A stretch of DNA of 64,000 bases from Aphrocallistes beatrix (Eukaryota > Porifera > Hexactinellida > Sceptrulophora > Aphrocallistidae): the NCBI GenBank assembly GCA_963281255.1, contig OY725496.1:4441723-4505722 (forward strand), written 5' to 3'. The notes beneath the pieces are model-generated. The model was not told the DNA's origin, ran no database searches, and saw only the letters and a program-made list of their open reading frames with translations. Made by a program: the position numbers and the translations under genes. Shown here piece after piece: positions 1,834 through 48,743 of this stretch; position 1 is the first letter of the stretch, and every line of letters begins with the position of its first letter.

Positions 1834-4053
1834 ATGGAGCATCGCCACAGGCCAGGACCTCTCAAGCAGCAGAACAAACCGCACAAGAAGTCCCGCCTCA
1901 CGAAAGGGGACAGCACAAAAACGCCCGGGCTCTCCTCCACCCGGGGGGCTGTCTCCCTGGGACGGAAGGAGCGACGGAACCGAGCCAATCAGATTCGAAA
2001 GAACAAACGCGAGCTGATCGTTTTGGAGAAGCGGGCACACGGTCTGTCCGGCTCCCCGCCCCACCTGCTCCTCCTGGTCCCGATGGCAGGGGACATCCAG
2101 CTGGAGGAGGTGTGCCGCTTGCTACAGGGACAGGAGGCCGCTACTTTCTACTGCGCAGGTGTGAAACAGAGGTTCACCGTGAGCTCCGCCCCCTACGGAC
2201 AGCTCTACCCCCTGCTGGACCTCGCCAAGGCGTGCGACTCCCTCCTCTTCATCTTCTCCGTGTCTGAGCCAATCAGCGAGTGGGCTGGGCAGGTGTTGAG
2301 TGTCCTCATGGCGCAGGGACTGCCCACGCCCTGCCACGTGGTGCGCGGGCTGGACACCGTGCCACCTAAGGACAGGAGTCAGACCCGTAACGCTGTCAGC
2401 GCAGTGGTGCACAACCTCCTGCCCGTCGACTCGAAGCTGTTCCCTCTGGACTCCCGGTCCGATGCGGACTGTCTCCTCCGCGTACTCTCGCAGCAGAAGC
2501 GGCGGTCTCTCGCCTACCGAGACAACCGCAGTCAGCTGTACGGCGAGCTCAGCGGGTATGACGTCACCACGCACTCGCTCTCTGTGCGTGGCTATCTCCG
2601 AGGAAAACCGCTGTCCCCCAACCAGCTCCTCCACCTCCCAGGGGCCGGCGACTTCCAGATCTCTCTCATCGAGACCAGTCCGGACCCCTGTCCCTTCGGG
2701 GGAAACTCTCGCGGAGGAGGGATGGAGTCGGAAGGAGAGAGTGTCCGCTTGGTCCCGGACCCCGAGCTCCAGGCGTCGCTGGACCCAGAGGCGCAGGTGG
2801 ACCCGATGGAGGGGGAGCAGACCTGGCCAACCGGGGAGGAACTGAAGTCGATTCTGAAACCGGAGAAGAGCTACCAATCCTCCTGGATCCCCGAGGCCGG
2901 GGGGTCCGGATCTGAGGGGGAGTCAGAGGGGGCGAGGGGGGGAGGGGAGGACAGCGGGTCGGAGGACCATCTGTCCCTCGGCAGCGAGGCGGAGTCCGAC
3001 TCCGGGATGACGGACACCTGGACCATGGACACGACGGACTACGATCGGACGTGTGACCCTAGCGCGGAGCGGGAGCAGCTGGAGAAGATGCGCGCGCAGA
3101 GAGAGGAGGCGATGTTTCCGGACGAGGTGGACACCCCCGTCGACACCCCGGCCCGCGTCCGGTTCCAAAAGTACCGCGGCCTCCAAAGTTTCCGGAGCTC
3201 CCCTTGGGACCGCTCAGAGAACCTGCCCCCTGAGTACGGCCGCATTTTCAAGTTCCAGAACTTCAGAGCCACTCAGAAGCGCGTGTTGGGCCGCACAGCC
3301 GAGGGCCAGGAGGCAGCAGCTGGTCTCTACGTCACGGTGCACCTCAGAGACTTCCCAGCTGATCTGGTGCCGCTCCTTCCCCCGTCCCTGGTCCTGTTCT
3401 CCCTGCTGCAGTTCGAGCAGAAGATGTCCCTGATGCACTTCGCCGTGAAGAGAGCCTCTTGCGAGGAAGTGGTCCAGTCGAAGGACCGCTTGCTCCTGCA
3501 GGTCGGATGTCGCCGGTACTCCGCCAATCCGATCTACTCGCAGCACTGCCCCGGAGACAAGCACAAGTTCGAGCGGTTCTTCCGAGGGGGCGGGACCTAC
3601 GTCGCATCTGTGTACGCTCCCATCACGTTCCCGTCCTGCCCCGTCCTCTTGTTCACTCCCCCCTCCCAGGCGTCCCCCCCACACCTCGTGGCGACCGGGA
3701 CAGTGCTGGCCGCGGGTCCGGACAGAATCACCTGCAAGCGGATCATCCTGAGCGGACACCCGCTCAGGATCCACCGGCGTTCCGCCGTGGTGCGCTACAT
3801 GTTCTTCGGCCGCGAGGACATCGATTGGTTCCGGCCGGTGCAACTGCGCACTAAACAGGGCCGAGTTGGGAACATTAAAGAAGCTCTCGGGACACACGGA
3901 CACATGAAATGCACATTTGACAAACAGCTGAAGGCGCAGGACACGGTTCTGATGCACCTCTACAAGAGGGTCTATCCCAAGTGGAGCTACTCCCCCCTGC
4001 TACTTGACACCTCCGTTAAAGAGGACCGAATGGAGATGGAGAGAGAGAAATGA
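1834..4053 (+). CDS. TSR1: TSR1 pre-40S ribosome biogenesis factor
   Basis: Intronless 739-residue TSR1 homologue (human about 804). TSR1 is a catalytically dead GTPase-like factor of the BMS1/TSR1 family that sits on late pre-40S particles and blocks premature joining of translation factors. The start reads HRPGPLKQQNKPHKKSR, nearly the family N-terminus, which fixes the ATG at 1834. A basic RRNRANQIRKNKRE helix follows, then a degenerate G-domain (about 75-200), the AARP2CN-like part (about 210-290), an acidic linker rich in E, S and G (about 320-400), and the conserved C-terminal half with RRSAVVRYMFFGREDIDWF and HMKCTFDKQL. The gene is very GC-rich compared with its surroundings, so long antisense ORFs here are shadows. 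Animal TSR1 genes normally have many introns; none is visible. Confidence 0.95.
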   Translation: MEHRHRPGPLKQQNKPHKKSRLTKGDSTKTPGLSSTRGAVSLGRKERRNRANQIRKNKRELIVLEKRAHGLSGSPPHLLLLVPMAGDIQLEEVCRLLQGQEAATFYCAGVKQRFTVSSAPYGQLYPLLDLAKACDSLLFIFSVSEPISEWAGQVLSVLMAQGLPTPCHVVRGLDTVPPKDRSQTRNAVSAVVHNLLPVDSKLFPLDSRSDADCLLRVLSQQKRRSLAYRDNRSQLYGELSGYDVTTHSLSVRGYLRGKPLSPNQLLHLPGAGDFQISLIETSPDPCPFGGNSRGGGMESEGESVRLVPDPELQASLDPEAQVDPMEGEQTWPTGEELKSILKPEKSYQSSWIPEAGGSGSEGESEGARGGGEDSGSEDHLSLGSEAESDSGMTDTWTMDTTDYDRTCDPSAEREQLEKMRAQREEAMFPDEVDTPVDTPARVRFQKYRGLQSFRSSPWDRSENLPPEYGRIFKFQNFRATQKRVLGRTAEGQEAAAGLYVTVHLRDFPADLVPLLPPSLVLFSLLQFEQKMSLMHFAVKRASCEEVVQSKDRLLLQVGCRRYSANPIYSQHCPGDKHKFERFFRGGGTYVASVYAPITFPSCPVLLFTPPSQASPPHLVATGTVLAAGPDRITCKRIILSGHPLRIHRRSAVVRYMFFGREDIDWFRPVQLRTKQGRVGNIKEALGTHGHMKCTFDKQLKAQDTVLMHLYKRVYPKWSYSPLLLDTSVKEDRMEMEREK

Positions 4054-4558: not shown

Positions 4559-5128
4559 CTATATAAAGCAGCACATGCATTTCCAGAAACTCCCATGATC
4601 ATCTTGGTCCATCTCCAACGGTTCAAGAGTCTGTTCTCCCGTGTGGCGTTTTCCTCCGGGGTAGCCTTTCATTAACAGATATATCGTGTACTCTACCTGC
4701 TTTGCCGGTAAACAGCTCTTTACTTCTTTCTTGTCTATCATCTCCGTTTCCTTCTTTCCAATGACAATTTCCAATCTCTGTGTCTTAAAATCTATAGCCC
4801 TCTTCTCCTCTATCAGCATCTTCAGCTGAAGCACGGTGGTCGCTTTGTCAATTGTGATGTCGAAATAATCTCCGTTTAAGCAAGTTATTCTGACTTCCAT
4901 GCCTGCCCTCACATTAGACAATAGGTATAGTGTGTGTCCATGTTTGATTGCGATATTTTCCAGTTTCTCTTCACTGAGTAACATCCTTTCTTTCACCATT
5001 AATTGCTGACAAGGGACTGGCAGTCCTTCTTCCTTGGCGATTTCATTTTGGAGATCACTGACCGTAGCATCCTGGTGTGTCTCGATTGTCAGACTCCTAC
5101 CTGTTAATGTGGAAACTTCGAAATCCAT
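4559..5128 (-). CDS. di-ubiquitin-like protein with CaaX prenylation box, copy 1
   Basis: 189 residues in one exon. Residues 1-76 form a ubiquitin-like domain: VSTLTGRSLTIETHQDATV aligns with the ubiquitin start, then EEGLPVPCQQL and HTLYLLSNVRAG, with RAG in place of the ubiquitin RGG. Residues 77-155 form a second, more diverged ubiquitin-like domain starting MEVRITCLNGDYFDI. The tail is polar and ends KCMCCFI: the last four residues CCFI fit a CaaX box, with a further cysteine (CMCC) that could be palmitoylated. No terminal Gly-Gly exists, so conjugation to targets is unlikely; I infer a membrane-anchored double-UBL, ISG15/FAT10-like in architecture but UBL3/MUB-like in anchoring. The family is not one I can name. 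It is the first of four tandem copies. Confidence 0.8.
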   Translation of the reverse strand: MDFEVSTLTGRSLTIETHQDATVSDLQNEIAKEEGLPVPCQQLMVKERMLLSEEKLENIAIKHGHTLYLLSNVRAGMEVRITCLNGDYFDITIDKATTVLQLKMLIEEKRAIDFKTQRLEIVIGKKETEMIDKKEVKSCLPAKQVEYTIYLLMKGYPGGKRHTGEQTLEPLEMDQDDHGSFWKCMCCFI

Positions 5129-5192
5129 TTTGTTCGTGAGAATATTCTGTAGTTTAGATAGAGCTGAGATTTTTAAAATCTCGATTTTACGT

Positions 5193-5236
5193 CCTATTTA
5201 TTGTGATGGATCTGTTCCAAGGCAATTCAATGCTCT
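5193..5236 (-). promoter_or_regulatory. conserved core promoter block of the di-UBL array (copy 1)
   Basis: Read on the minus strand, CCTTGGAACAGATCCAT is followed about 4 bp later by an AATAAATAGGA TATA-like stretch about 70 bp before the ATG. The same order and spacing occur upstream of the other copies (about 6379-6420, 7775-7815 and 9399-9440). Conservation outside the coding region at this fixed distance supports a core promoter, though recent duplication alone could also explain it. Confidence 0.5.
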
Positions 5237-5794
5237 ACTATAGTAATTGTGACTTCCTACTTACTAGTCATTACTCACATTATACATTGATATTAAATGT
5301 ATTTTGCTATATGAAGTAATTTAGTAGTACATTGATATATTAAGTAATGGGCTATTAGACTTGATGTGATGATAAACTTTTTGACGTTGTTTCAATATAA
5401 TTTAACTGTTGTATAGAGTTACTGAGGTGTGTAGCACACGCCTGAGGGTAGGATCTAGCCTTTGGAAGAATAATGCGATGGGAGGGAGTAGGCGCGACCC
5501 TACAAAATCTAGAGTCCGATTTCAAGCAAAATTTCGCGTGTAGGATCCGGTCCCTGTAAAGTGTGAGTCTGCACTTGCTATTTTTTCGGTTAATATATGC
5601 TGAATATTCTAGTATTGGCTGATGTGAGTCTAGAGTTAGTTATTTTCACTTATTAAACTCTTGTTCGTATCTCTTACTATCAAGTCACATAATCCTATTA
5701 ATAGTACATTTGTAACAAAAAGGTTTAGAGCACTTGTAATACAAACATCTTATGATAGAGTAGTATGCATATGTCCATATACTTCTACATTGTA

Positions 5795-5802
5795 TGACGT
5801 CA
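5795..5802. promoter_or_regulatory. CRE-like palindrome TGACGTCA past the stop of copy 2
   Basis: A perfect 8-bp CREB/ATF-type palindrome 11 bp beyond the stop codon of copy 2. Matching sites lie at 7107-7114 (11 bp past copy 3) and 8746-8753 (11 bp past copy 4). It may be only part of the duplicated unit. Confidence 0.4.
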
Positions 5803-5812
5803 TCGCCACCTC

Positions 5813-6331
5813 CTATAGGATATTACATTTCCCTTTCGGGGGCCGGTTCATCCTATCACTTCTCATTAGTAGAGATATGGAGTACTCTCCCGGTCTACAA
5901 ACACCGTCAGGGAAGTAACTCATTACTTCTTTCCTGTTTATCATTTCCCACTCTTTTTTTCCAATGTTAATTATCAATCTCAGCGTGTTAGCATCTATAG
6001 CCCTCTTCTCCTCTATCAGCATCTTCAACTGATGCACTGTGTCCGTCTTGCCAACCAGGACGCAGAATTTATCTCCGTTTATTAAAGTTATTTCGACTTC
6101 CGTGCCAGCCCTCACATTAGACAATAGGTATAGTTTGTGTCCATGCTTAATTGCGATATTTTCCAGTTTCTCTTCACTGAGTAACATCCTTTCTTTCACC
6201 ATTAATTGCTGACAAGGGACTGGCAGTCCTTCTTCCTTGGCGATTTCATTTTGGAGATCACTGACCGTAGCATCCTGGTGTGTCTCGATTGTCAGACTCC
6301 TTCCTGTTAATGTGGAAACTGAAAAATCCAT
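5813..6331 (-). CDS. di-ubiquitin-like protein with CaaX box, copy 2
   Basis: 172 residues, the shortest copy. The first ubiquitin-like domain differs from copy 1 at only two of its first 73 residues (E4S and T66K). The second domain, starting TEVEITLINGDKFCV, is much more diverged and has a two-residue longer turn (DGVCRPGEYS). The acidic C-terminal linker of the other copies is missing, so the protein goes almost directly from the second domain into PPKGKCNIL. CNIL is a CaaX box with terminal L, the type that usually directs geranylgeranylation, preceded by basic residues that could help membrane binding. There is a single cysteine at the tail and so no neighbouring palmitoylation site. The ORF is intact. 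Confidence 0.78.
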   Translation of the reverse strand: MDFSVSTLTGRSLTIETHQDATVSDLQNEIAKEEGLPVPCQQLMVKERMLLSEEKLENIAIKHGHKLYLLSNVRAGTEVEITLINGDKFCVLVGKTDTVHQLKMLIEEKRAIDANTLRLIINIGKKEWEMINRKEVMSYFPDGVCRPGEYSISLLMRSDRMNRPPKGKCNIL

Positions 6332-7124
6332 TTTGTTCGTGAGAATATTCTGTAGTTTAGATAGAACTCAAAGTCCTATTTAATGGTATGGATCTGTTCC
6401 AAGGTAATTCAATGCTCTGCTATATAATAGTAGTCATTCTGACTACCTACTCGTCATTAGTAATACATTTATTTTGATATATGAAGTAATTAGTATTACA
6501 TTGACATATGAAGTAAAAGTCCTGGACTATTAGACTCTGAACTTGATGCAATGTGATGAAGACGTTGTTTTCGACAGAATTTAACTGTTGGATCGAGTTA
6601 CCAAGGTGTGTAAGAGTGTATCTTGTGATTGATGAAGTATATTGTAGACATTGAATGAATACGAATTAGTGATGTGTGCTATCCAATATTTCAATTCGGA
6701 TTAGATATCCAAGGGAGATGTTCACTACGGATGTTAGTTGTTGTCTGTGCACGCCTGAGGGTAGTATATAGCCTTAGGAAGAATAATGTGATGGGAGGGA
6801 GTAGGTGCGATCCCACAAAATCGAGAGTCGATTCCAAGCAAAATTTCGAGTTTAGGATCCGATCCCTGTAAAGTGTGAGTCTGCACTTGCTATTTTTTCG
6901 GTTAATTTATGCTGAATATTCTAGTATTGGCTGATGTGAGTCTAGAGATAGTTATTTTCACTTATTAAACTCTTGTTCGTATCTCTTACTATCAAGTCAC
7001 ATAATCCTATTAATAGTACATTTGTAACAAAAAGGTTTAGAACACTTGTAAATACAAACATCTTATGATAGAGTAGTATCATATATCCATATAGCTCTAC
7101 ATTGTATGACGTCATCGCCACCTC
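6332..7124. other. promoter of copy 2 and second copy of the spacer block
   Basis: Contains the conserved core promoter block near 6379-6420 and, from about 6776 to the stop of copy 3, a near duplicate of the 5467-5812 spacer. Small ORFs here and in the neighbouring spacers are not conserved between copies and are not called. Confidence 0.65.
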
Positions 7125-7712
7125 CTATAGGATACTACAACAGCATTTCTTTTCCGCTTTAGAGTTCATCCTATCGCTTTGCTCAATCTCAATCGGTTCA
7201 AGATCAACTTCTCTCGAATTCCGAGTTCCTCTCATTGAGCCTTTCAATAGTAGGGCTATCGAGTACTCTTCGTGGTTACGAATAGTATTATCTGGGAAAT
7301 AGCTCACTACTTCTTTCCTGTCAAACATCTCCGTTTCAACCCTTCTAATGCTAATTACCAATCTCTGCATGTTAGCATCTATAGCCCTCTTCTCCTGTAT
7401 CAGCATCTTCAGCTGGGACACTGTGGTCGTATCGTCAATCAAGATTTTAAACTTATGTCCTTCCATGGAAGTTATTTCTACTTCCATGCCAGCTCTCACA
7501 TTAGACAATAGGTATAGTGTGTGTCCGTGTTTCATTGCGATATTTTCCAGTTTCTCTTCACTGAGTAACATCCTTTCTTTCACCATTAATTGCTGACAAG
7601 GGACTGGCAGTCCTTCCTTGGCGATTTCATTTTGGAGATCACTGACCGTAGCATCCTGGTGTGTCTCGATTGTCAGACTCCTTCCTGTTAATGTGGAAAC
7701 TTCGAAATTCAT
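7125..7712 (-). CDS. di-ubiquitin-like protein with CaaX box, copy 3
   Basis: 195 residues. The first ubiquitin-like domain matches the others apart from D2N, loss of one Glu codon (AKEGLPV instead of AKEEGLPV) and I60M, so an in-frame 3-bp deletion has been tolerated. The second domain starts MEVEITSMEGHKFKI and is diverged, including RRVETEMF where other copies have GKKETEM. A linker with LEPIEIEQSDRMN leads to a basic, cysteine-rich tail KAEKKCCCSIL ending in CaaX box CSIL with two extra adjacent cysteines. The Leu end suggests geranylgeranylation, and the extra cysteines could be acylated, as in some small GTPases. No terminal Gly-Gly. Neighbouring copies lie on both sides with the same orientation. 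Confidence 0.78.
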   Translation of the reverse strand: MNFEVSTLTGRSLTIETHQDATVSDLQNEIAKEGLPVPCQQLMVKERMLLSEEKLENIAMKHGHTLYLLSNVRAGMEVEITSMEGHKFKILIDDTTTVSQLKMLIQEKRAIDANMQRLVISIRRVETEMFDRKEVVSYFPDNTIRNHEEYSIALLLKGSMRGTRNSREVDLEPIEIEQSDRMNSKAEKKCCCSIL

Positions 7713-8763
7713 TTTGCTTGTGATGATTCTGTAGTTTATTCGATATAGCTCAGATACTTAACATCTCAACTCTACCTCCTATTTATTGGGATGGATCTGT
7801 TCCAAGGTAATTCGATGCTCTCTTCCATAATAGTCCTTCTCACTTCTAATCATGAGTCATTACGTTAATATAGAATTTATTTTAATATAGTCTGAGATAA
7901 TACGTAATGGGGTTTGACTCTGAACTTGATACAAATATGAAAATTTTGATGACGTTTTTAATATAATTTAATTGTTGGATTGAGTTGCTGAGGTTGTAGT
8001 GTAAATGTTGACTGATGAAATATACTTTTAGTTATGATTATTAGTATTTTATCTAAGGTGTAAAATCACTTGAATAGATGCAGATATCAAACAATATCTA
8101 ATTACTTCACGTGCTGATACGAGTAGAATGTTACTACGTATATATAATATTTTAATTCGATACTAGATATCCAAGAGGGAGACTACGGATGCTAAGGAGT
8201 GACACCATTTTCGCTCCTTCTTTCGGGACTATTTAAGTGAGGCTACTTTCCAAATGGATTATATCTAAATAATGACTTGACTTAGATATGCGAGAGATAT
8301 TTTTATCTAAGTGGAATCGTTTCTGTTCTAGTTCCTATCGATTTAATTTCGTTATATCTGGCATGCTATGCGGAGTTGCCAGAAATTATTTAGTTTATAG
8401 AATTTTGAGTTTTGAGTTCATCTCTTATGGGGAGATGTCCTTACAGCATGAACTGTGTATCAAACGCCTCCGTTGTGCGATCCTGCGAAATCTATCCACC
8501 TTTTTTTCAGATTCAACGGCTAATATAATATATGCTATTCCACTACATATGCAGAATCCGGTTGCTATGAAGCTAAAACACAAAAATTTCACGATTCATT
8601 AACGGATGAATTCGATTTGAGGTAAATCTACGAATAAGGGCATCTTCCTAGTGCTCTCGAATTCATCAGATATTTGACAAGCATTCATGCGAATGAACAG
8701 ATATTATGTTAGAGTAGTGCGTACATGTCTACATTATACACTCTATGACGTCATCACCGCTTG
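7713..8763. other. promoter of copy 3 and diverged third spacer block
   Basis: The promoter block is near 7775-7815. The remaining sequence is an older, more diverged version of the array spacer, including CGCCTCCGTTGTGCGATC near 8465 and the TGACGTCA at 8746. A 104-codon ORF at 8288-8602 has no counterpart in the sister spacers and is not called. Confidence 0.6.
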
Positions 8764-9354
8764 TTAGAGTATACTACAGTGGCATAAAATACATAGTCTC
8801 GAGTACAGGCTGGAACGGTAAAGTTCGGGCTCAACCTCCATCGGTTCAATATTTGGTCCATCCGAATGGCGTGTTCCTATCAGGCCTTTCATCAGTAGAG
8901 ATATCGTGTACTCTTCAAGACAATTATCTGGGAGATAGCTCATTACTTTTTCCTTTTCTATCATTTCCGTTTCCTTCTTTCCAATAATGCTTATTACCAA
9001 TCTCTGTGTGTCAACATCTATAGCCCTCTTCCCCTGTATCTCCATCTTCAGCTGACGCACTGTGGTCTTATTGTCAATCAGGATGTAGAAATAATCTCCG
9101 TTTATGCAAGTTATTCTGACTTCCGTGCCTGCCCTCACATTAGACAATAGGTACAGTGTGTGTCCATGCTTAATTGCGATATTTTCCAGTTTCTCTCCAC
9201 TGAGTAACATCCTTTCTTTCACCATTAATTGCTGACAAGGGACTGGCAGTCCTCCTTCCTTGGCGATTTCATTTTGGAGATCACTGACCGTAGCATCCTG
9301 GTGTGTCTCGATTGTCAGACTCCTTCCTGTTAATGTGGAAACTTCGAAATTCAT
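8764..9354 (-). CDS. di-ubiquitin-like protein with CaaX box, copy 4
   Basis: 196 residues, the last full copy of the array. The first ubiquitin-like domain differs from copy 1 by D2N, E34G and a SEEK to SGEK change. The second domain begins TEVRITCINGDYFYI and is closest to copy 1 there, suggesting that copies 1 and 4 are sisters or have exchanged sequence. The linker carries IEPMEVEPEL, related to the LEPLEMDQ of copy 1. The tail is hydrophobic and cysteine-rich (RLCILCHCSIL) and ends in CaaX box CSIL. The ORF is intact. As with its sisters, I infer a prenylated, membrane-anchored signalling or adaptor protein that cannot be conjugated through its C-terminus. Confidence 0.78.
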   Translation of the reverse strand: MNFEVSTLTGRSLTIETHQDATVSDLQNEIAKEGGLPVPCQQLMVKERMLLSGEKLENIAIKHGHTLYLLSNVRAGTEVRITCINGDYFYILIDNKTTVRQLKMEIQGKRAIDVDTQRLVISIIGKKETEMIEKEKVMSYLPDNCLEEYTISLLMKGLIGTRHSDGPNIEPMEVEPELYRSSLYSRLCILCHCSIL

Positions 9355-10628
9355 TTGTTCGTGAGAATATTCTGTAGTTTAGATAGAGCTCAAAGTCCTA
9401 TTTAATGGTATGGATCTGTTCCAAGGTAATTCAATGCTCTGCTATTATAGTAGTAATTTTGACTACCTACTCGTCATTAGAAATAAATTTATTTTGATAT
9501 ATGAAGTGATGCTATTATACTCTGAACTTGATGCAATAATGATTTTAATGTATCTGTTGATTGATGGAATATATTGATACTTTTAGAAAGTCTATTTGTT
9601 TATCTCTATCTGATTATTAGTAATGCATCTAACCTGTAAATACTTGAATAGCAGATGTAGACCTCGAACGAAGATGTATGGATAATTCGATATTGATATC
9701 CGAGAGGAGATGTTAGTTTACAACCGTTTAAAGAAGTTTATTGTGCTTTCTATACACTCGTGTCATTCTTTAGAAAAGATAATATGATGGATAGAGCCTT
9801 CCTTAGGGACTGTGGAACGACCCAAATTCTATTATGAAGATTGTCACTATCTAATAATAATAATGAAATGTATTTTAGTCCGGTTGTATGTAGCATTACT
9901 AGCTAATGTAGTCGATTTAACTCAGTTTAATCGCTGTACCTCATTCTAGTTATAGCGGGACATTTGACAAATCAATGTGGTCATACAATTTGTACACGTT
10001 GGAGTTTCGATATTTCTATTTAAGAATAATGGTTTAATGTCTAAAAGTAAATAAATTCATTATGTTATATCCTTGCCTGAAGATAGTTAATACAAATAAC
10101 TTTAACTAAAATTCTTGAAAATCGTATTTCTTTAGCTTTTTGAAAATTTGAATTTTGAGTGCCTCTCTTCTAGAGATGCCCTTATAGCATGGACGGTGTA
10201 CACCTCCGTGTGTGCGATCTTGCAAAATCTAACAATCCGAAATCTATCAAATTTCGCGTGTAGGATCGCTCATCTGTATCTGCTATTTTCCAGATCTCAA
10301 CGCTAATATGAGAATCCAGTGCCTGTAAAGCTAAAATGTGAATATTTCATTAACAAATGATTTGGACAAGTTTCAATTGCATTATCAGTTTGAAATGAAT
10401 TTGAAGTAAATTTAGAATTGACAAGCGTAGTACACCATCCATCCCATAAGGGCATCTTCCTACGAGAGTTCGCCAGTAAGCGCGCTCGTACACCTGTATA
10501 TACTATCATAGCATTATGTGCTATTGTAAATACGTATTTTAAATATTTGTGATAAGCTGTGAAACCCTCGCATTCAAGTGAGATCTCAGTCCAAGGCTAG
10601 ATAGCGTCCGGTACTACCAACCACTGAT
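9355..10628. other. promoter of copy 4, degenerate fifth spacer block, and DBHS upstream region
   Basis: The core promoter block of copy 4 is near 9399-9440. Between about 10190 and 10470 there is a diverged copy of the array spacer (CTCCGTGTGTGCGATC, AATTTCGCGTGTAGGATC, AAGGGCATCTTCCTA) that is not followed by a di-UBL gene. It ends just before the DBHS gene and probably marks the right border of the duplicated region. Confidence 0.55.
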
Positions 10629-13256
10629 ATGTTCAACTACAGAACTAACCCACATGGAGTTCGCCCCATCGGGGGCAGCTATTTCAGGACCCCTCCAGGC
10701 CAAAGATCTCAACGCCAGAGCTATAACAGACCGATCCCTTCTTCGAACAAACCGATGTCCAGCAAACCAATGGGAAGCAGACCAGTCCAGACGAGCCCGC
10801 GTACGGCGATCAAACAGGGAGAAAAGTTCCAAGATAAGTCGTCGAGGCCTGCCGTAGAGCAGGTGTCTTCTACCGTCGATAAAAGGGAAGAGAAAGGGCC
10901 GTCTTCCCCCACCGTAGTCCAGCAGACCTCGAAGCAGTCCACAGTGAATCAAGAAACCACTGAGCCCGCTGGTCCCATCACACCATCCTCTTCTAACCCA
11001 CCTGAGTCCAAGGCTGAGAAGGCTCCCCAGCCCGAAGCTGCTCCGAGCAAAGATAACAAAAGCGCCAATGTTAAAGAGGACGAAATGTCTTGGAGTCCTC
11101 CCCCACCTGAGCCTCCCCAAAAGCCACTCTCCTTTCCTCTGACAGGTGTTGATGACTCTTCACAAAGAAATGATAACTCAAACAAAGTTCCTTTCGGTGC
11201 TGCACTCACTAACAAAGGCCCCTCCTTCTCCGGGAGAAATGAGAATGAGAGTAAGGAAGAAACTGCTCTCACCAACCCGAATGACCCTCCCTTTCAGAGC
11301 CAAGTGATGAAAGGGCAAGGGCACCAGTACAAGAAGTCAACACAGTACAGATATGACAGACAGCAACAACCTCCACAACAACAACAACAAACTCCACCAC
11401 AGCAAACACCTCCTCCAACCAAGAGTGAACCCGTCCACAATGAATCACTCAACACGGAGCGAACACAGCCACAAAACGCTCAACCACAATCTGACAATAC
11501 TCCGTTCGGTAGGAGGAAATCTGGAGGACCCCCTGGGGGTGGCAGATGGGGCAAGACAGATAGGCCCCCTAGGCGCTCAGAGCCGCACCCCTCCCCGATG
11601 GAAACTGAGTATGAAATGGCGCCAAATGTTGATCGATCTATACTCAATGCAGAGCCGAAGGAACATGTAAAAAAGTTTACGAATCGCTCTCGGTTGTTCA
11701 TTGGTGGAATCCTGAATGCGGACGAGAAACTTCTGAAAGATATGTTTATCAAGTTCGGAGAGATTTCAGAGCTCTGGCTCAACAAGGAGAAAGGATTTGG
11801 TTTCGTCAAAATGGGCACAAGAGCGAACTGCCAGAGAGCTATCGACCACTACAACGGACAGGAACGGATGAATACTATGGTGCGCGTCCGTTTCGCCGCG
11901 AAGAACAGCTCTGTGAAAGTTACCAACCTCACCCATGCTGTGACCAACGAACTCCTAGAAGAGGCGTTTAAGATATTTGGAGACGTGGAGCATGCAGTAG
12001 TAGCTTGTGATGAACGCGGGAAGTCTATTGGATGGGGCATAGTAGACTTTGCAATGAAAAAGTCTGCGACTATTGCTATCGCCAGGTGTAAGGAAGGACT
12101 ATTCATGCTCTGCAAGAGTCCCATCCCCGTAATGGTAACTGAGTTGAAGGAAGAAGATTTGGAGGAGGGAGTAGTTGAGAAAACGATGCACAAGAACGTT
12201 CTGTACCAGAGAGAAAGAGAGGATAAGCCGAGATTCGCAATGCCTGGCTCGACGGATTATCAGATTGCAATGAAATGGAAGTTATTTCTTGAGAACGCGC
12301 GGTCCGAACGAGAAATGTTAGAAGAGAGATTGAAAGCGGAAAAAAATCAACTCGAAAATGAAACTGAAAACGAATTGATACGCTTTCTTGAAGAACAAGA
12401 CCATATACGGCATCAAGAGATGTTGAGAAGGCAGGAGGAGCAGCGGCGAGTAGAAGATAGTCGGAAACAGGATTACTTGCGCCAGCAGGAAATGATTAAG
12501 CAAGAGAACAGACGGAGAAACCAGAGCACGCGACTGCAAGAAGAACTCAAGAGGCGAGAAGAATCGTTGCGAAGAGAAGGCGAGATGATGCCCCCTAGGG
12601 AAGACAGAGCATACGACCGTCCATATGGTCAGTCAGAAGTGTCATTTGGTTATAGCCAAGACTACGAACACGGATGCAGCAGTGAGAAGAATAGCGACTG
12701 GCAAGGATCAAGGAAGGATTGGGGCAATGAGTCCGCTCAAGGCTTTGGAGCCGGGTCTGGCTATCCTGCGCAAGGAAGGACTACTCAATCTGGATACGAA
12801 GACTACCCCGGCTACTCCACCCAATCCCAGCACGGAGACGCATTTAACAAGGACAAGGGGATCAGTTCCCAGTCACAGTACGGATCTGGGGATCAGTTTA
12901 GAAACGAATCCCGCCACTCCGGAGGGGGCTACGGGGGCTACTCGAGCGTCACTGGAGCCACGGGTGCAGAATCGTACCGAGACTACGGGAGTGCTGCCCA
13001 CTCATCTGCTGGCTATCAGTCTGACAGTGGGTATGGTGCTGGATACGGACTAACCACCTCTCAAGCACTCCAGAACTCAGCTGATCGCTCCTGGACCTCC
13101 CAGCGACAAGACCAAGGCTATGACGGGATGTTCTCCGGGGGGATGGAGTCTGCTGGAGCTGGGGGTGGATACGACAGGAGGAGGCCACACACTGACGACT
13201 GGCAAGCTGAAAGAATCGACTATTACGCTGGTCTTGACAAGCGTAGAAAGCTATAA
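10629..13256 (+). CDS. DBHS-family RNA-binding protein (NONO/SFPQ/PSPC1/NonA-like)
   Basis: Intronless 875-residue nuclear RNA-binding protein of the Drosophila-behaviour/human-splicing family, which acts as dimers in transcription, splicing, RNA retention and (in vertebrates) paraspeckles. The order is: low-complexity Pro/Ser/Gln N-terminus with a polyQ/P patch near 245; RRM1 from RSRLFIGG (about 352) with GFGFVKM; RRM2 from VKVTNLTHAVTNELLEEAF; a NOPS segment with KNVLYQREREDKPRFAMPGS and YQIAMKWK; a long Glu/Arg-rich coiled coil to about 665; then a Gly/Tyr/Ser/Gln-rich tail resembling a prion-like region, ending in basic DKRRKL. The core order and motifs match NONO closely. The N-terminal extension is SFPQ-like. 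Animals usually have introns here. A poly(A) signal follows at 13368. Confidence 0.95.
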   Translation: MFNYRTNPHGVRPIGGSYFRTPPGQRSQRQSYNRPIPSSNKPMSSKPMGSRPVQTSPRTAIKQGEKFQDKSSRPAVEQVSSTVDKREEKGPSSPTVVQQTSKQSTVNQETTEPAGPITPSSSNPPESKAEKAPQPEAAPSKDNKSANVKEDEMSWSPPPPEPPQKPLSFPLTGVDDSSQRNDNSNKVPFGAALTNKGPSFSGRNENESKEETALTNPNDPPFQSQVMKGQGHQYKKSTQYRYDRQQQPPQQQQQTPPQQTPPPTKSEPVHNESLNTERTQPQNAQPQSDNTPFGRRKSGGPPGGGRWGKTDRPPRRSEPHPSPMETEYEMAPNVDRSILNAEPKEHVKKFTNRSRLFIGGILNADEKLLKDMFIKFGEISELWLNKEKGFGFVKMGTRANCQRAIDHYNGQERMNTMVRVRFAAKNSSVKVTNLTHAVTNELLEEAFKIFGDVEHAVVACDERGKSIGWGIVDFAMKKSATIAIARCKEGLFMLCKSPIPVMVTELKEEDLEEGVVEKTMHKNVLYQREREDKPRFAMPGSTDYQIAMKWKLFLENARSEREMLEERLKAEKNQLENETENELIRFLEEQDHIRHQEMLRRQEEQRRVEDSRKQDYLRQQEMIKQENRRRNQSTRLQEELKRREESLRREGEMMPPREDRAYDRPYGQSEVSFGYSQDYEHGCSSEKNSDWQGSRKDWGNESAQGFGAGSGYPAQGRTTQSGYEDYPGYSTQSQHGDAFNKDKGISSQSQYGSGDQFRNESRHSGGGYGGYSSVTGATGAESYRDYGSAAHSSAGYQSDSGYGAGYGLTTSQALQNSADRSWTSQRQDQGYDGMFSGGMESAGAGGGYDRRRPHTDDWQAERIDYYAGLDKRRKL

Positions 13257-40772: not shown

Positions 40773-43700
40773 ATGGAGACGATTGGCGAGGGCGCAGAGC
40801 AGTCGGAACGGAGCAAGTCCCCCGTCCCCTCGAGCCACACCCTGCGGAGCACGGGGGAGCAGGGCGACAAGGAGAGCCAGGAGTCCCGCCGGAGGGGCAG
40901 TCCAGACCCGAGCGTCTTCTCTGACAACAAGGAGGAGAGAATCCGAGCCCGGCGCCTGAGGATCCGGCGCCGACTAGAAGAGGAGGAGAGGAGAGCGAAC
41001 AAGAAGGACGGAGATGCAGATGTCGAGAGGGAACACAGCCCTCGACAAGAACGTATCAGCGTCAAGCAGGTATGCACTGGCCGCAGACCTAGCTGTAGCG
41101 ATCCATGGTCCATTCTACATGTGCGTAGGTGCTCAAGAGCAAGCAAGAGCTGGTGATGATGGTGCGCGAGAGTGACCAGCTGCTGCGTGACGTCATCATA
41201 GCGGGAGATGCGCGCGAGCAGAACCGCAGACGCGGCGAGGACGACAACTCGAAGACCCGCACTGAGAAGCTGGAAGCGGAGAGCAACACTGGCAAAGAGA
41301 GATTCGACGAAATAGCAAAGAGGTGCGATGACACAATAATTTGTATAGTAGAGTTATATGTGAACCAAGGATATCGGAATACAGTCGACTCCGCTTAATC
41401 GGGTCACTTTTGGCAGGACCGGAATGGTTCCACATAGAAGCCAAAAAGAATATTTCGGTAATAGGGTTCTCCGCTTGATCGGACCAAATGTCCTCTGACC
41501 GATGTGTCCCTATTAAGCGGAGTCGACTGTGTATTCATAGATAGAGTTAAGCAAGCATTTACTATGGCGTAATATTTGTGTGTGCGAAGATGGGAGAGCT
41601 CTGAAGGGAAGAATCTGCCTCAGGAGCTGCATGATCTGCTGGGGCAGCAAATAGCTGACTACGAAGAAATGACGAATGAGAAGAACCGACTGATCAAGGA
41701 GTTCGAGTCTGAGCTGAAGGTAAAGGATGACCAGTACATCCGGGACCTGAAGCAGCAGGCGGAGGACGTGGACCTACTGCTGGAGAGGATGGAGAACCAG
41801 GCCAGGACCCTGGCACAGGCGTACAACAAGGAACTGCGAGAGATTGATAACGCGTTCACGCGGGAGAGAGGACACCTGGTTAGATTTGATTTGTAGACAG
41901 CTGCTAATAAATAGAGATTACCTAGCTGAATGATCAGAATTCGTTGTTAGGAAATGTCAGATTATAAGGAATAACAAATTACGTATTGAGAGGTACATCT
42001 CTACGGTACATGAGTAGATGAGTACGAATGTTTTCAACGTCTCGGAGTGTAGACTGGAGTTGAGACTCCCTCTCTGTATAGGTAGAGGAGCAGGGGTCAG
42101 AAAACGATAGGGTTACAGGGGATCGGGGGAAGTTGGAGGTGCAGTACATGGAGGACTACCAGACTCTGATAGAGGAGAGTGACACCCAGCTGGAAGAGCT
42201 GCTGAGGAACGGAGCAGAGGACTACAGGACGACTAAGATCCAGCTAGAGAAGGACATCCAGTTCTTGGAAGTGCAGCTGGAACAGATGAAGGCTACGTTC
42301 CGACTCAACATCGAAAAGTTGGATTACAATTTCCTGGTTTGTTACCCAAATTCCTTTTTCAACCAATAAATTCCGTTCTTAGTATAAGAAATGTAATTTT
42401 ACATAAAAGTTAACTTTCACATCCAATCAAACTCGATTGGATGAAACTTCTGGCTGATAAAATGTTCAGTATGGATGTCTACTACAATATCATGTTAACA
42501 TTATCGTGATGACGTCATGATGACTCATAACATAACCTTTCACACGTATATTCTCACAATAAGTTGGAAGCACAACCTATCCCGTCTGTGTGGGACTTTT
42601 TATATCACATATTGCTACGTAGCTTATTTGTTAGAATGAAAACTAAGCTCATTACCCACTGTAATAATGCAATGGGATGCATGAGTATGATGTACATTGT
42701 AGAGCATTGGTTAGGTAGTGAAGAAGAGAGACGAGGAGAACAAGAAGACAGAGAACCAGCAGAAGAGGAAGATCTCCAGACTGCAGGACCAGTTCAACAG
42801 TCTGCGATCTCGACGCAGGACGCAGGAAGAGAAGTTCTCCTCGGAGCTGAAACTCCTGGGGGAGGAGTACCAGAAGGCAGCCGACCAGCTGAGAGACCTA
42901 CAGCTCAAGCTCAGTCACTTCCAGGTTACAACATAGCCGCATTGATATGCCATGAACATTCCAATGCAGTCTAGCTCGAACTAGGACTGTGGAGTAACTG
43001 ATCTGTTCCTGCTATTTATAGGAGACGGACGAGAAGAAGTTCAATGATGTATGGGTGATGAGTGAAGAGGAGATCCGCGGATTGGTCAAAGACGTGCTCA
43101 AGACAGACGAGATAATTCACAGTCAGCAGTTAGGAGTCGACTGGACGACTCCGGCCCTCCCTGATAGCACATACCGCAAATTCGTACCGGAACAAATCGT
43201 CTCTGCGTCTCACATCTTGCAGGACGTGTTCTCCTCCGACGGAAGCAGCCAAGTCTCTCTCCTCAGCGACCAGGGGAGAAAGAGGGGCGTCGGACTCCAG
43301 GACGCGACCCCTTTCTTCGACGGACAGCTGGGAGATTTCCCCGCTCAGTTCGTGAGACAAGCTCTTGAGCTGATAAGCAAGGAGGGAGAATTCTTGGTGG
43401 AGGTAGAGCAGTATTAATCTAACCACAAATACACAGCTAAACTAGTCTATAAATAGCTTTCAGGGTCGCAGCCACTTGGGCAGGTCGGAGAGCAGGCTGA
43501 GTTGAATGGACACATACACGGTGTCTCTGACGCAGTACTCCACTTCGCTTGTCTTCTCAGCCAACTGCTGACGAGACACAAACTTGTTGAACCCCCAAAA
43601 CTTGTTCGCTCCGTCCGTCGGTTGCGGGTAGTCCTCAGGGAGGACAGTCCTGCTCATGCTCACGTGGTGCCGGTCTGTCTGTTGGTTGAGTAGTGTCACC

Positions 43701-45683
43701 GTGAACTTGCTGCCAGCTCGAATCGGCCACTCTAGAACTGTGTCGTTTGCCCCCTTCACCACCGCCAGGTGGACCGACACATGTGTCCCTTCTCCTTGTC
43801 TCGCCCCGCCTAGATTCAGCTTAGCGCTGAATTTGTACCCGTCTCTGTAGAACGGGGGACTAGCCATTCGGGCGTTGTCTCGAATCCCCTCTTCGACCCC
43901 TTGCACCCGCCAGACATAGGGTCTGCTGCTGGAGACCTGGGAGGAGAGTTCGGACACTTCTGTCCTCAGGTCTGAGATGGCGTGGCAGGCTAGGTGGAGG
44001 TGTTCCCTCACACCTGAGGACAAGTGCTGCTCATGTTGACTGCGAATCAGCTCTACGTCGCACCCAATTGCACGGAAAGAACAATAAACGACTTTATTCG
44101 GACACTTTTCTAAGTGCTTTTCTGTTTCTCTTCTCGTTACCTGTTCCCCGCATCCTAGCGAACACTTCCAAGGGTACTGCTCACACGTCTCAAGGTGTGA
44201 ATCCCTCGTGTCCGCTTCCATTTCTTCTCCGCAGTATTGACACTCGACTCTCCTTTTGGGACATTTCGTTCTTCTGTGTAACTCCAACTCAACTCGAGGT
44301 AGCGATTGGCCACATTCACACTTGAGCGACACCTTACAACCCTCTAGTAGGTGTTCCTCGAGAGAACTGAGTGCTGACTCCCATTCGCACCCCTTTGGGC
44401 ACGTCACGCGTTTGCTCAATATCTTCTTTTCCTCTCGTTTATCTCTAAAGTTCGAATTTTCTAACTTCTTTCCATCGATTGGACAGTTTGGTTCTGTACT
44501 CGCGACGCTATTTTCAAGACAAATCCTGCAGAAGATATGCTCGCAGCTAGTCTGCGTTGGTTCTCTCGATATACCGTTACAAACCGGACAGATTTGCTCT
44601 TCATCGATTGGTTGATCCAAGAAATAGTCTCTCTTAAAACCGCCGTTCCAGGATTTTCCATATCTCTCCGAACGGCAGTACATAAAACTGTCAAGACTGC
44701 TCTGTTCCGAAGCCATTCGAGCCAAGAAAACACCACACACTTTCAAAAGGAATTATGCCTACTAAACTACCTGTAGTGCTATTCCAATTAAGAATTATCA
44801 TGTTAAACAATGATCCACCTAGTGTGTATTATGGGGAGAGAGATATCAAAGCTATTTCCAAAAGTATTTTGTTACCAGTTATCTCAAATTTACTTTTCGT
44901 GTAGGAGAAACTGAACTCACTCCTCTCTCCCCTCGACAGAGAGGAACAAGTACTCATGAAGCTGGACGCCATCTTCCAGTCTTTACAGGTAGAAACGAAA
45001 CAAGACATCATCCAGCTGTTACAGTACATAATACTACGCATAGAGTCCGAGTACGACGAACTAGAAGGAGAAGATGTGGAGTCGGAACCCACTATCACAT
45101 TCGAACTCATCCGTCCCGAGATGGTGTCTCAAGCACTGAGGTATGTGTTAGTAACAAGAATTCGTATTCGGTACACGTGAAAAAATATACAGTAGAACTT
45201 CGTTAATAGGAAAACGGTAATACCAAGTTGTTAGCCCCTCGGAATAAAATTAATGTAAATCAATCCAGTTAATACGAACAAATTTCTGGTTTTCATATTA
45301 ACTAGGTTCTGCTGTAGTAGTGTTTATATTCACAATTGTCCAGATCTTATATTGAAACGAAGAAAGAGAGAGAAGCTGGGATTCCTGTTAAAACGGCAAC
45401 TCGGGTGGACAAGGAGAGAGAGCGAAGAGAAGTGCTGAACGGAAGCTACTGGCACCAGATGGCCAACATCCTTCCTCCAATGCACGAGTGTCTATGGACT
45501 GGACTCCTTGAGGGTCTCGGTCAGTATAACCACGAGTTGGAGCAGAGAGAGAAACTGATTGAGGAGACGGACGCTCTACAGCTGCAGAATGACGAGCTTA
45601 AGATGCTCTTGCACCAGTATTTGGAGGCCCAAGTCAACCAAGAGTTGTTGCAACCTCCAATGCAGACTATCGCTCTAAGCTAA
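40773..45683 (+). CDS. DRC1: DRC1 (CCDC164), nexin-dynein regulatory complex subunit, 8 exons
   Basis: Exons by hand: 40773-41069, 41129-41322, 41590-41878, 42082-42336, 42715-42924, 43022-43402, 44905-45140 and 45344-45683, all GT..AG with consistent phase, giving 733 residues (human 740). DRC1 is a coiled-coil scaffold of the nexin-dynein regulatory complex of motile cilia. Strong matches run through RIRARRLRIRRRLEEE, KNLPQELHDLLGQQ, LLERMENQARTLAQAY, QLEQMKATFRLNIEKLDYNF, KKRDEENKKTENQQKRKISR, FNDVWVMSEEEI, LMKLDAIFQSL, YWHQMANILPP and the C-terminal QNDELKMLLHQYLEAQVNQE. The organism therefore has motile cilia. Intron 6 (43403-44904, 1.5 kb) contains a complete TRAF-like gene on the other strand; introns 2 and 7 each hold a MITE. 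Confidence 0.94.
41381..41530. mobile_element. 150-bp MITE in DRC1 intron 2
   Basis: Perfect terminal inverted repeats of at least 19 bp, ACAGTCGACTCCGCTTAAT and its complement at 41512-41530. Ends of the CAGTCGACTCCGCTTAA type resemble pogo/Tigger elements. A clean TA duplication is not seen. Confidence 0.75.
43460..44716 (-). CDS. TRAF-like RING / zinc-finger / MATH protein nested in DRC1 intron 6
   Basis: 418 residues in one exon, start at the ATG at 44716 (MASEQSSLDS). TRAF proteins link receptors to NF-kB/JNK signalling and can act as E3 ubiquitin ligases. RING at residues 43-83: CPVC, CEHIFCRIC and CPIDG fit the TRAF-type C3HC3D pattern. About 105-220 are TRAF-type zinc fingers with repeated CPKGCEW, CQYCGEEM, HLETCEQYPWKC, HLEKCPNKVVYCSF. 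A short helix follows, then a MATH/TRAF-C domain (about 268-410) with YKFSAKLNLGG, WPIRAGSKFTVTLLN, FWGFNKFVSR and YCVRDTVYVSIQL. The long trimerising coiled coil of TRAF2/3 is short here; TRAF4/TRAF6-like classes are possible. It lies fully inside intron 6 of DRC1, antisense. Confidence 0.9.
   Translation of the reverse strand: MASEQSSLDSFMYCRSERYGKSWNGGFKRDYFLDQPIDEEQICPVCNGISREPTQTSCEHIFCRICLENSVASTEPNCPIDGKKLENSNFRDKREEKKILSKRVTCPKGCEWESALSSLEEHLLEGCKVSLKCECGQSLPRVELELHRRTKCPKRRVECQYCGEEMEADTRDSHLETCEQYPWKCSLGCGEQVTRRETEKHLEKCPNKVVYCSFRAIGCDVELIRSQHEQHLSSGVREHLHLACHAISDLRTEVSELSSQVSSSRPYVWRVQGVEEGIRDNARMASPPFYRDGYKFSAKLNLGGARQGEGTHVSVHLAVVKGANDTVLEWPIRAGSKFTVTLLNQQTDRHHVSMSRTVLPEDYPQPTDGANKFWGFNKFVSRQQLAEKTSEVEYCVRDTVYVSIQLSLLSDLPKWLRP
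45190..45314. mobile_element. 125-bp pogo/Tigger-like MITE in DRC1 intron 7
   Basis: Left end CAGTAGAACTTCGTTAATA and right end, inverted, CAGCAGAACCTAGTTAATA (16 of 19 match). TA flanks both sides (45188-45189 and 45315-45316), fitting Tc1/mariner-pogo insertion. Confidence 0.8.
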
Positions 45684-47654: not shown

Positions 47655-48743
47655 ATGGGATTAGATAACATCCTCTATTTAAATTTCATACTGAGTAAAA
47701 TGGAAATTGACAGAGTTATTACTATAAGTTGCGCCCTCAAAATATTTTTCGAAGGACTTACTCTTATTTTATTGTCGATTCGTACAATTAATTGTTGGAG
47801 AATAAAGCAGCGGATATCAGATAAGAATAGTCAGGAGTACAAAAAGGCTTTGTTTAATTATTGCAAATTCGGTCTATGTATCCCCATAATTGTTACCGAG
47901 ACATTGGCCATTATACTTATGGCTATTACGAACTTTGAATATGTTAGTTTTGAATCACAGGCAAATGGATTTTTCTACCAAATAGTTCCTTCTAATTGCA
48001 GCATGTTCAATTCTCCATCAATGGTGTGTGCTGCGTATCTTGGGCCTTTCTGTCTCACTCTGCAGGCATTAACTATCGTCGCCATTTTGTGTAGCATCCA
48101 GTTTCTCAACATCATGAACACGTTTCTAGTGAATGTTATTCGGAAAAGTCAATTCAATCTGAATTTGATTGAGAAACAAGCTTGGTGGCTATTCGGAGAA
48201 AGTATTTTTCTAATTGCATTAAACTCGATTGAATTCACCTTCATAATAGGAGTGATTTTAGGCTATGTCATTATTCTGTACAGCTTGTTCAGACTTTGCA
48301 AGGGATATCGTGAAGTTTACCATGCACTAAGATGGAGAGCCGTTGACCACTTGCTGTTACCTCGGGAGCGAGCACACTTCAGAAGACAAGCCCACACATA
48401 CAAGTACACATCTATAATCCTGTGTTGTATTGGAGCATACTTAATCATCTCTCTATCGCTATTTAATATATTCGTAACAGGCCTCTTCGATTTCCTTTTT
48501 CAGCCCTGCTGGGTGAATAGGATATACTCAATACAGTTCCAGCTACCACCAACTGCATATGTAGTGAAGGGTTTTCTGACAAATCTTTTCAGATTTTTGG
48601 AACGCACCGCCTTATTATTCTGGCTGCTACTCACTACTTTACTCAATCTGGTTGTTCAAGTCACTATTGTTGTGACATATCGCAAAAATTTATCTAAAAG
48701 ATACCACCTCAAAGTGTGGGCCTTAAGATATTACCACAAATAG
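47655..48743 (+). CDS. multi-pass membrane protein of unknown family, copy A
   Basis: 362 residues, one exon, not recognised. About seven hydrophobic stretches can be placed: 20-42, 74-97, 122-149, 177-193, 194-214, 253-278 and 312-340, separated by basic loops such as CWRIKQRISDKNSQEYKK and RAVDHLLLPRERAHFRRQAH. There is no signal peptide and no DRY, NPxxY or other class A GPCR motif. The charge pattern allows a seven-pass receptor-like topology, but a transporter or other multi-pass protein is equally possible. Two relatives lie downstream (B at 50442, C at 52371), so it belongs to a local, recently duplicated family. Flanks are duplicated too. Both a TATA box and an AATAAA (48932) are present, and the ORF is intact, so A is the copy most likely to be expressed. 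Confidence 0.65.
   Translation: MGLDNILYLNFILSKMEIDRVITISCALKIFFEGLTLILLSIRTINCWRIKQRISDKNSQEYKKALFNYCKFGLCIPIIVTETLAIILMAITNFEYVSFESQANGFFYQIVPSNCSMFNSPSMVCAAYLGPFCLTLQALTIVAILCSIQFLNIMNTFLVNVIRKSQFNLNLIEKQAWWLFGESIFLIALNSIEFTFIIGVILGYVIILYSLFRLCKGYREVYHALRWRAVDHLLLPRERAHFRRQAHTYKYTSIILCCIGAYLIISLSLFNIFVTGLFDFLFQPCWVNRIYSIQFQLPPTAYVVKGFLTNLFRFLERTALLFWLLLTTLLNLVVQVTIVVTYRKNLSKRYHLKVWALRYYHK

What the first reader, a model, noticed from the sequence alone, without database searches (positions are those of the whole stretch)
4559..9354. Tandem array of four prenylated di-ubiquitin-like proteins
Four same-strand genes in under 5 kb each encode two ubiquitin-like domains followed by a CaaX box (CCFI, CNIL, CSIL, CSIL). 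Double UBLs such as ISG15 and FAT10 end in Gly-Gly for conjugation, and prenylated UBLs (UBL3/MUB) have one domain. I know of no described family joining a double UBL to a CaaX anchor. Local amplification and variable second domains are what one expects of a lineage-specific, possibly defence- or stress-related family, but that role is inference.
Basis: partly seen in the sequence, partly recalled or inferred. Interest (0 to 1): 0.85.

Follow-up and report, generated by a model that had tools for sequence, protein, structure and literature searches.

The report
Membrane-tagged double-ubiquitin-like gene array
A probable glass sponge carries four neighbouring genes for small proteins built like two fused ubiquitins with a lipid-anchoring tail signal, a combination not described in the papers searched; the first half is almost the same in all four and the second half differs.

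Summary
Four intact single-exon minus-strand ORFs (189, 172, 195, 196 aa) lie where stated and end in CCFI, CNIL, CSIL, CSIL. Copy 4 is modelled as two ubiquitin folds plus a disordered tail; the best PDB match is linear di-ubiquitin, with ISG15 and OASL lower down. Genome searches found these four copies only. Counterparts of all four, CaaX boxes identical, are in the protein database, perhaps alleles. The genome encodes GGTase-I beta and an ICMT-type protein. Domain 1 keeps none of ubiquitin's seven lysines and has R72N and G75A, so conjugation or cleavage is unlikely. Domain 1 is homogenised (dS 0.06-0.11); domain 2 is diverged (dS 0.23-0.54, omega about 1, not significantly above). The mitochondrial code and no Wnt match suggest a glass sponge. 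Best reading: membrane-tethered, non-conjugating linear-di-ubiquitin mimics with a constant first and a variable second module. Prenylation, expression, partners and any defence role are untested.

The parts
4559..5128 (-). copy g1, 189 aa, double UBL, ends ...FWKCMCCFI
   Evidence: ORF; Pfam PF00240 E 7.9e-18, 2 stretches; counterpart P0002
5813..6331 (-). copy g2, 172 aa, double UBL, short tail, ends ...PPKGKCNIL
   Evidence: E 2.7e-18; counterpart P0004 differs at 1 residue
7125..7712 (-). copy g3, 195 aa, double UBL, ends ...KKCCCSIL
   Evidence: E 2.2e-17; counterpart P0003 differs at 1 residue
8764..9354 (-). copy g4, 196 aa, double UBL, ends ...CILCHCSIL
   Evidence: E 8.3e-16; counterpart P0001 95% identical; modelled fold
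9127..9354 (-). domain 1 (constant) of g4; matching stretches 4901-5128 (g1), 6104-6331 (g2), 7488-7712 (g3)
   Evidence: the 4 genome matches found (96-100% DNA identity) are these; dS 0.06-0.11
8881..9126 (-). domain 2 (variable) of g4, approximate bounds; ubiquitin-like fold
   Evidence: strands and helix 77-155; dS 0.23-0.54 between copies
4562..4573 (-). CaaX box of g1 (CCFI)
   Evidence: same in P0002
5816..5827 (-). CaaX box of g2 (CNIL)
   Evidence: same in P0004
7128..7139 (-). CaaX box of g3 (CSIL)
   Evidence: same in P0003
8767..8778 (-). CaaX box of g4 (CSIL)
   Evidence: same in P0001
9355..9445 (-). conserved upstream block (possibly proximal promoter and 5' UTR); counterparts 5150-5241, 6332-6423, 7735-7826
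   Evidence: family D3 (64-99% ungapped); columns 240-359, 80-97% identity with gaps; promoter role is inference
10128..10349 (-). possible remnant of the 3' flank of a further unit, without a coding part
   Evidence: 67% identity over 231 columns to 8386-8591, E 1.6e-17; reading as a lost unit is inference

Best explanation
Each gene makes a stable mimic of linear (Met1-type) di-ubiquitin that is geranylgeranylated at its cysteine fourth from the end and held on the cytosolic face of a membrane by a flexible tail (about 35-40 residues; very short in g2). It cannot be conjugated or cut like ubiquitin, because domain 1 ends in NVRAG, not RLRGG, and the protein ends in CaaX, not Gly-Gly. It works by non-covalent binding: domain 1, kept nearly the same in all copies, docks one common partner of the ubiquitin system through its I44-type patch (L8, M44, L70), and domain 2 gives each copy its own second contact. 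The set would recruit, or compete for, ubiquitin-handling proteins at membranes, as the one-domain UBL3/MUB does for E2 enzymes. Shown here: ORFs, homology, a predicted fold for one copy, loss of conjugation residues, CaaX boxes and genes for part of the CaaX pathway, constant and variable halves. Inferred: prenylation, membrane site, partners, and that selection rather than chance keeps the second domains different.
For: Two ubiquitin folds in the model of g4; Foldseek best match linear di-ubiquitin 3b08 E 2.2e-14; match of residues 3-122 to linear polyubiquitin, across the domain joint, without gaps in the alignments shown. Domain 1: none of 7 ubiquitin lysines, R72N, G75A, patch L8/M44/L70. 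CaaX in 4 of 4 copies and 4 of 4 counterparts, 0 of the other 46 window ORFs. GGTase-I beta (L032, best match 1n4p E 6.9e-98), FTase beta, RabGGTase beta, ICMT-type ORF. Human GGTase-I in yeast modifies a wide range of CaaL/I/M boxes (PMC11152559, passages). Three of 4 tails have a cysteine one or two places before the box, similar to the extra cysteine before the box of UBL3 orthologues (PMC10511055, passages). Domain 1 homogenised, domain 2 diverged. MUB precedent: prenylated, tethers E2s to the plasma membrane and inhibits their charging (PMC4996978, abstract and passages).
Against: No expression, localisation or binding data. The good model rests on an alignment of 15 rows of which 7 are poly-UBL or ubiquitin-like proteins from outside the family; with only the 8 family rows the prediction (of g1) failed (pLDDT 39). 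Domain orientation is not determined (pTM 0.47; TM-score 0.38 by query length to the best match). Omega in domain 2 is not different from 1, as relaxed constraint would give. CSIL does not occur in PMC11152559 (0 occurrences; CNIL and CCFI not looked up), and there Ser at the first 'a' place lowered modification of CxIM boxes (CSIM about 50%). The UBAN-type domain CC2-LZ was not found in the genome (no positive control).
Confidence: 0.5

Rival explanations
1. UBL3-like sorting factor: the cysteines at and before the CaaX box attach the protein to membranes and, by thiol chemistry, to cargo that is sorted into vesicles; the family stands in for UBL3 in this animal.
For: 3 of 4 tails carry C-CaaX (g3) or C-x-CaaX (g1, g4) cysteines; UBL3 of human and several animals has C-CaaX and both cysteines are needed for substrate modification (PMC10511055, passages). 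No UBL3 match in the genome with PF13881 (2 candidates scored, 0 matches) or with recalled human UBL3 (0 candidates).
Against: PF13881 is not among the families listed for the four copies at E up to 10 (filters drop most matches above 0.1). The absence of UBL3 has no positive control and introns could hide it. g2 has no extra cysteine.
Confidence: 0.2
2. Duplicates under relaxed constraint: domain 2 and the tail drift, domain 1 stays alike only because the 5' half is converted between copies; little or no function in the extra copies.
For: Omega about 1 in domain 2 (lnL -840.51 free, -840.55 at 1); tails strongly diverged; homogenisation extends into non-coding DNA upstream and, for g2/g3, downstream.
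Against: Four intact ORFs and four intact counterparts; CaaX kept while tails diverge; in the first 46 residues of domain 2 core positions vary less (2 of 9 against 23 of 37, p 0.06; core list recalled); domain 1 omega about 0.3 (omega 1 disfavoured, 2 delta lnL 5.8).
Confidence: 0.15
3. The CaaX box is not used; the proteins are soluble linear-di-ubiquitin mimics or decoys.
For: No prenylation evidence; the first 'a' place affects human GGTase-I and Ser there was worse in CxIM boxes (PMC11152559, passages).
Against: Box kept in 8 of 8 sequences with diverging neighbours; GGTase-I beta and an ICMT-type gene present.
Confidence: 0.11
4. ISG15/FAT10-type conjugating modifier released from a precursor.
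For: Same two-domain plan; ISG15 chains are among the fold matches.
Against: No Gly-Gly end: g1 has GG three residues into the tail (YPGGKRH) but the other copies do not, and all four end in CaaX; domain 1 ends RAG with N72.
Confidence: 0.04

Closest known systems
Linear (Met1-linked) di-ubiquitin / polyubiquitin gene products
   Same: head-to-tail ubiquitin folds without an inserted linker; domain 1 has ubiquitin's length (75-76 aa; 22-23 of 76 identical)
   Different: no Gly-Gly at the joint, lysines lost in domain 1, disordered tail with CaaX; the same genome also has an ordinary 4-unit polyubiquitin ORF and a 2-unit ORF
UBL3 / MUB (PF13881)
   Same: ubiquitin fold plus CaaX, no Gly-Gly end
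   Different: one domain there, two here; PF13881 is not among the listed matches
ISG15 and FAT10
   Same: two UBL domains in one small protein; ISG15 found by fold search
   Different: those end in Gly-Gly and are conjugated (recalled); these end in CaaX
OASL tandem UBL (PDB 7sbi, chicken)
   Same: tandem UBLs in one chain; fold match at ranks 39-40
   Different: in OASL they follow an OAS-like domain (recalled); here they stand alone with a CaaX tail
Divergent poly-UBL array on contig C15 of the same genome
   Same: clustered, largely single-exon ORFs of divergent tandem UBLs
   Different: several domains per ORF; 0 of 12 ORFs examined ends in CaaX (some are partial ORFs)

Membership tests
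Ubiquitin superfamily (PF00240, beta-grasp) | match above the Pfam gathering score | tested here: met
   4 of 4 copies, 58.0-65.9 bits against a cut-off of 25.4
Ubiquitin superfamily (PF00240, beta-grasp) | beta-grasp fold in both domains | tested here: met
   predicted for one copy (g4): of the 16 ten-residue blocks up to residue 160, 12 have mean pLDDT 83-93 and 4 have 68-76; the alignment held ubiquitin-like rows; no experimental structure
ISG15/FAT10 conjugating modifiers | C-terminal Gly-Gly (or a maturable one) | tested here: not met
   all four end in CaaX
UBL3/MUB | PF13881 profile match | tested here: not met
   absent from the lists of all four at E up to 10
UBL3/MUB | C-terminal CaaX | tested here: met
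   4 of 4
UBL3/MUB | one ubiquitin domain | tested here: not met
   two domains
UBL3/MUB | prenylation and membrane location | not testable with these tools
   needs a bench test
Polyubiquitin precursor | cleavable RLRGG joint | tested here: not met
   joint reads NVRAG in 4 of 4

The most novel reading that the evidence does not exclude
A lineage-specific set of membrane-tethered, uncleavable linear-ubiquitin mimics with a constant module 1 and a diversified module 2. Module 2 varies at positions equivalent to ubiquitin's F4 patch (4, 12, 14, 16) and the 19-24 region (for example position 14 = D/C/K/Y and 24 = L/H/S/R), the face that, as recalled, linear-chain readers touch on the second ubiquitin; so each copy would capture a different ubiquitin reader, or a microbial or viral effector, at the membrane: an innate-immune or self-recognition family built from ubiquitin.
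Probability: 0.15. Interest if true: 0.85.

Novelty: new variant of a known kind. Interest (0 to 1): 0.57.

Why it matters
As far as I know, UBLs are conjugated through Gly-Gly, or are part of larger proteins, or (UBL3/MUB) are single-domain and prenylated. A small tandem UBL that trades Gly-Gly for a CaaX anchor would show that evolution can turn linear di-ubiquitin, a signalling chain, into a standing membrane-bound receptor or decoy. It would also give a simple test protein for ubiquitin readers at membranes in an early-branching animal.

Tried and rejected
Structure from the eight family rows alone (g1 predicted): failed, pLDDT 39, no conclusion drawn. Shared-run test for pairwise gene conversion in the coding region: no pair exceeded shuffles (312 to 1783 of 2000 shuffles reached the observed run in the six pairs); the homogenisation of domain 1 rests on low dS and the polymorphism contrast, not on that test. 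Positive selection in the first half of domain 2: the grid peaks near omega 2 but omega 1 is not rejected (2 delta lnL 3.2); the second half peaks near 0.5. These fits use four sequences, fixed kappa values and one tree, which conversion violates. Core-versus-surface contrast p 0.06, first 46 residues of domain 2 only (core list recalled). Wider relatives: the profile search at E up to 10 gave only the same four proteins among 5347 candidates; the eukaryote coverage of that database is unknown to me, so the distribution beyond this species or close kin is open. CC2-LZ search empty without control. 18S rRNA search for the organism did not complete. Organism: glass sponge is inferred from cox1 that reads TGA as Trp and AGR as Ser, with AUA best read as Ile (read by eye against recalled cox1; AGR and AUA in glass sponges from PMC2267718 passages), from no Wnt match (no positive control; absence of Wnt genes in Oopsacas in PMC10280926 passages) and from single-exon genes (many in Aphrocallistes, PMC10282587 passages). 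Viral origin: BFVD matches look like generic ubiquitin folds, so not pursued.
Full report
Observation. Four ATG-to-stop ORFs on the minus strand lie at 4559-5128, 5813-6331, 7125-7712 and 8764-9354 (189, 172, 195, 196 aa), ending CCFI, CNIL, CSIL and CSIL. They sit between a TSR1-type gene (1834-4053; RIBIOP_C E 1.7e-106) and a NONO/SFPQ-type gene (10629-13256; RRM_1 and NOPS; name recalled). Pfam finds ubiquitin in all four with two stretches each. The other three are 71-74% identical to g1.

Copies and counterparts. In the window's genome (100.5 Mb, 28 contigs) the protein search gives 27 matches: four full members, all here, and 23 weaker ones: 3 on C12 and 1 on C16 (ubiquitin tandems), 1 on C3 (ubiquitin-ribosomal fusion) and 18 on C15 (a divergent poly-UBL array) (counts are lower bounds; ORFs). 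Domain-1 DNA has four matches, all here. The protein database holds four counterparts and no others at E up to 10 with a profile. They pair one to one with the four copies (residue differences: g1 8, not counting three extra N-terminal residues of P0002; g2 1; g3 1; g4 9). Each is listed with a longest contig of 234,924 bases, so probably one contig. A C15 protein of this genome is present in that database at 100% identity (P0005), so the second set may be alleles or another individual of the same species; I cannot tell.

Folds. With 15 rows the model of g4 shows strands and helices in ubiquitin order twice (residues 2-71 and 77-155); residues 158-196 are below pLDDT 50. Foldseek: linear di-ubiquitin first (3b08, E 2.2e-14), ISG15 from rank 26, chicken OASL at ranks 39-40. 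Domain 1 aligns to ubiquitin without gaps except one residue missing in g3; 22-23 of 76 identical; none of the seven lysines kept (g3 has its gap at one of them); R42Q, R72N, G75A; patch residues L8, M44, L70.

Anchor. Of 50 window ORFs of at least 100 aa only these four match a loose CaaX pattern. At the DNA level the boxes of g2, g3 and g4 align; g1 is one codon shorter there and still has a cysteine fourth from the end, with Phe and not Ile at the last-but-one place (read by eye). The genome encodes beta subunits of RabGGTase (L031), GGTase-I (L032) and FTase (L033; its C-terminal 251-aa ORF tested) by best PDB match, and an ICMT-type protein (L042; called ICMT by its score and by eye). The alpha subunit and Rce1 were not searched. 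X = L or I fits GGTase-I: human GGTase-I in yeast modified a wide range of CaaL/I/M boxes, CIIL, CTIL and CVIL fully, but CSIM only about half (PMC11152559, passages). Prenylation itself is untested.

Constant and variable halves. Domain 1: dS 0.06-0.11, dN 0.01-0.035 over six pairs; domain 2: dS 0.23-0.54, dN 0.19-0.31, ratio 0.57-1.15. Polymorphic gap-free columns: 14 of 225 in domain 1, 98 of 237 in domain 2 (Fisher p 5e-20). In the unit alignment all six pairs are 80-100% alike in every 60-column window from column 240 to 599 (upstream block and domain 1) and 65-88% from 600 to 839 (domain 2). From 960 to 1259 (end of the coding part and 3' flank) g2 and g3 are 93-100% alike, the other pairs 29-70%. 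So g2 and g3, which differ most at synonymous sites of domain 2 (dS 0.54), carry it between two near-identical blocks. The six domain-1 differences between copies and their counterparts (g1 four, g2 one, g4 one) all switch between residues seen in other copies, as conversion would give. Maximum-likelihood omega on a grid: domain 1 about 0.3, domain 2 about 1. The pairwise shared-run test was negative. This pattern allows diversification of domain 2 beside a homogenised domain 1, or simply a relaxed domain 2.

Mechanism. I hold that these are non-conjugated, membrane-tethered tandem UBLs acting by binding. The nearest working precedent is MUB, whose prenylated form tethers E2 enzymes to the plasma membrane and inhibits their charging (PMC4996978, abstract and passages). 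OTULIN-type peptidase (PF16218) matches exist in the genome, 9 of 13 with stops inside, which may be introns or broken copies; CC2-LZ was not found (no control).

Novelty. [quoted passage not shown] Full-text searches for a double UBL with CaaX found none by title and abstract start (listings only; the library lacks most subscription journals). I file it as a new variant: known domains and a known anchor signal in a combination not described in what I could search.

Noticed in passing
G000 contigs C1 (9.29-9.32 and 11.69-11.77 Mb), C7 (0.44-0.47 Mb), C15 (3.53-3.56 Mb), C9 (3.05-3.06 Mb): ICMT Pfam family PF04140 gives 40 matches, 35 of them in these clusters, mostly open frames of about 200-225 aa; one elsewhere (C2:718019) looks like true ICMT. 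A large expansion of ICMT-like membrane proteins.
   Followed up: partly
G000:C15:555000-585000 (L021-L024): Cluster of divergent poly-UBL ORFs (115 to 677 aa, several ubiquitin-like units each); 0 of 12 examined ends in CaaX.
   Followed up: partly
window 5795-5802, 7107-7114, 8746-8753: Perfect TGACGTCA just downstream of the stop codons of g2, g3 and g4; g1 has TGAAGTCA there (read by eye).
   Followed up: no
window 47655-48743, 50442-51296, 52371-53459: Three closely similar multi-pass membrane protein ORFs by eye, two on + and one on - (the middle one shorter).
   Followed up: no
window 43460-44716: ORF that by eye looks like a RING and TRAF-type protein.
   Followed up: no
G000:C14, C7 and C16: 13 OTULIN-like (PF16218) matches, 9 with in-frame stops: introns or decayed copies.
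   Followed up: no
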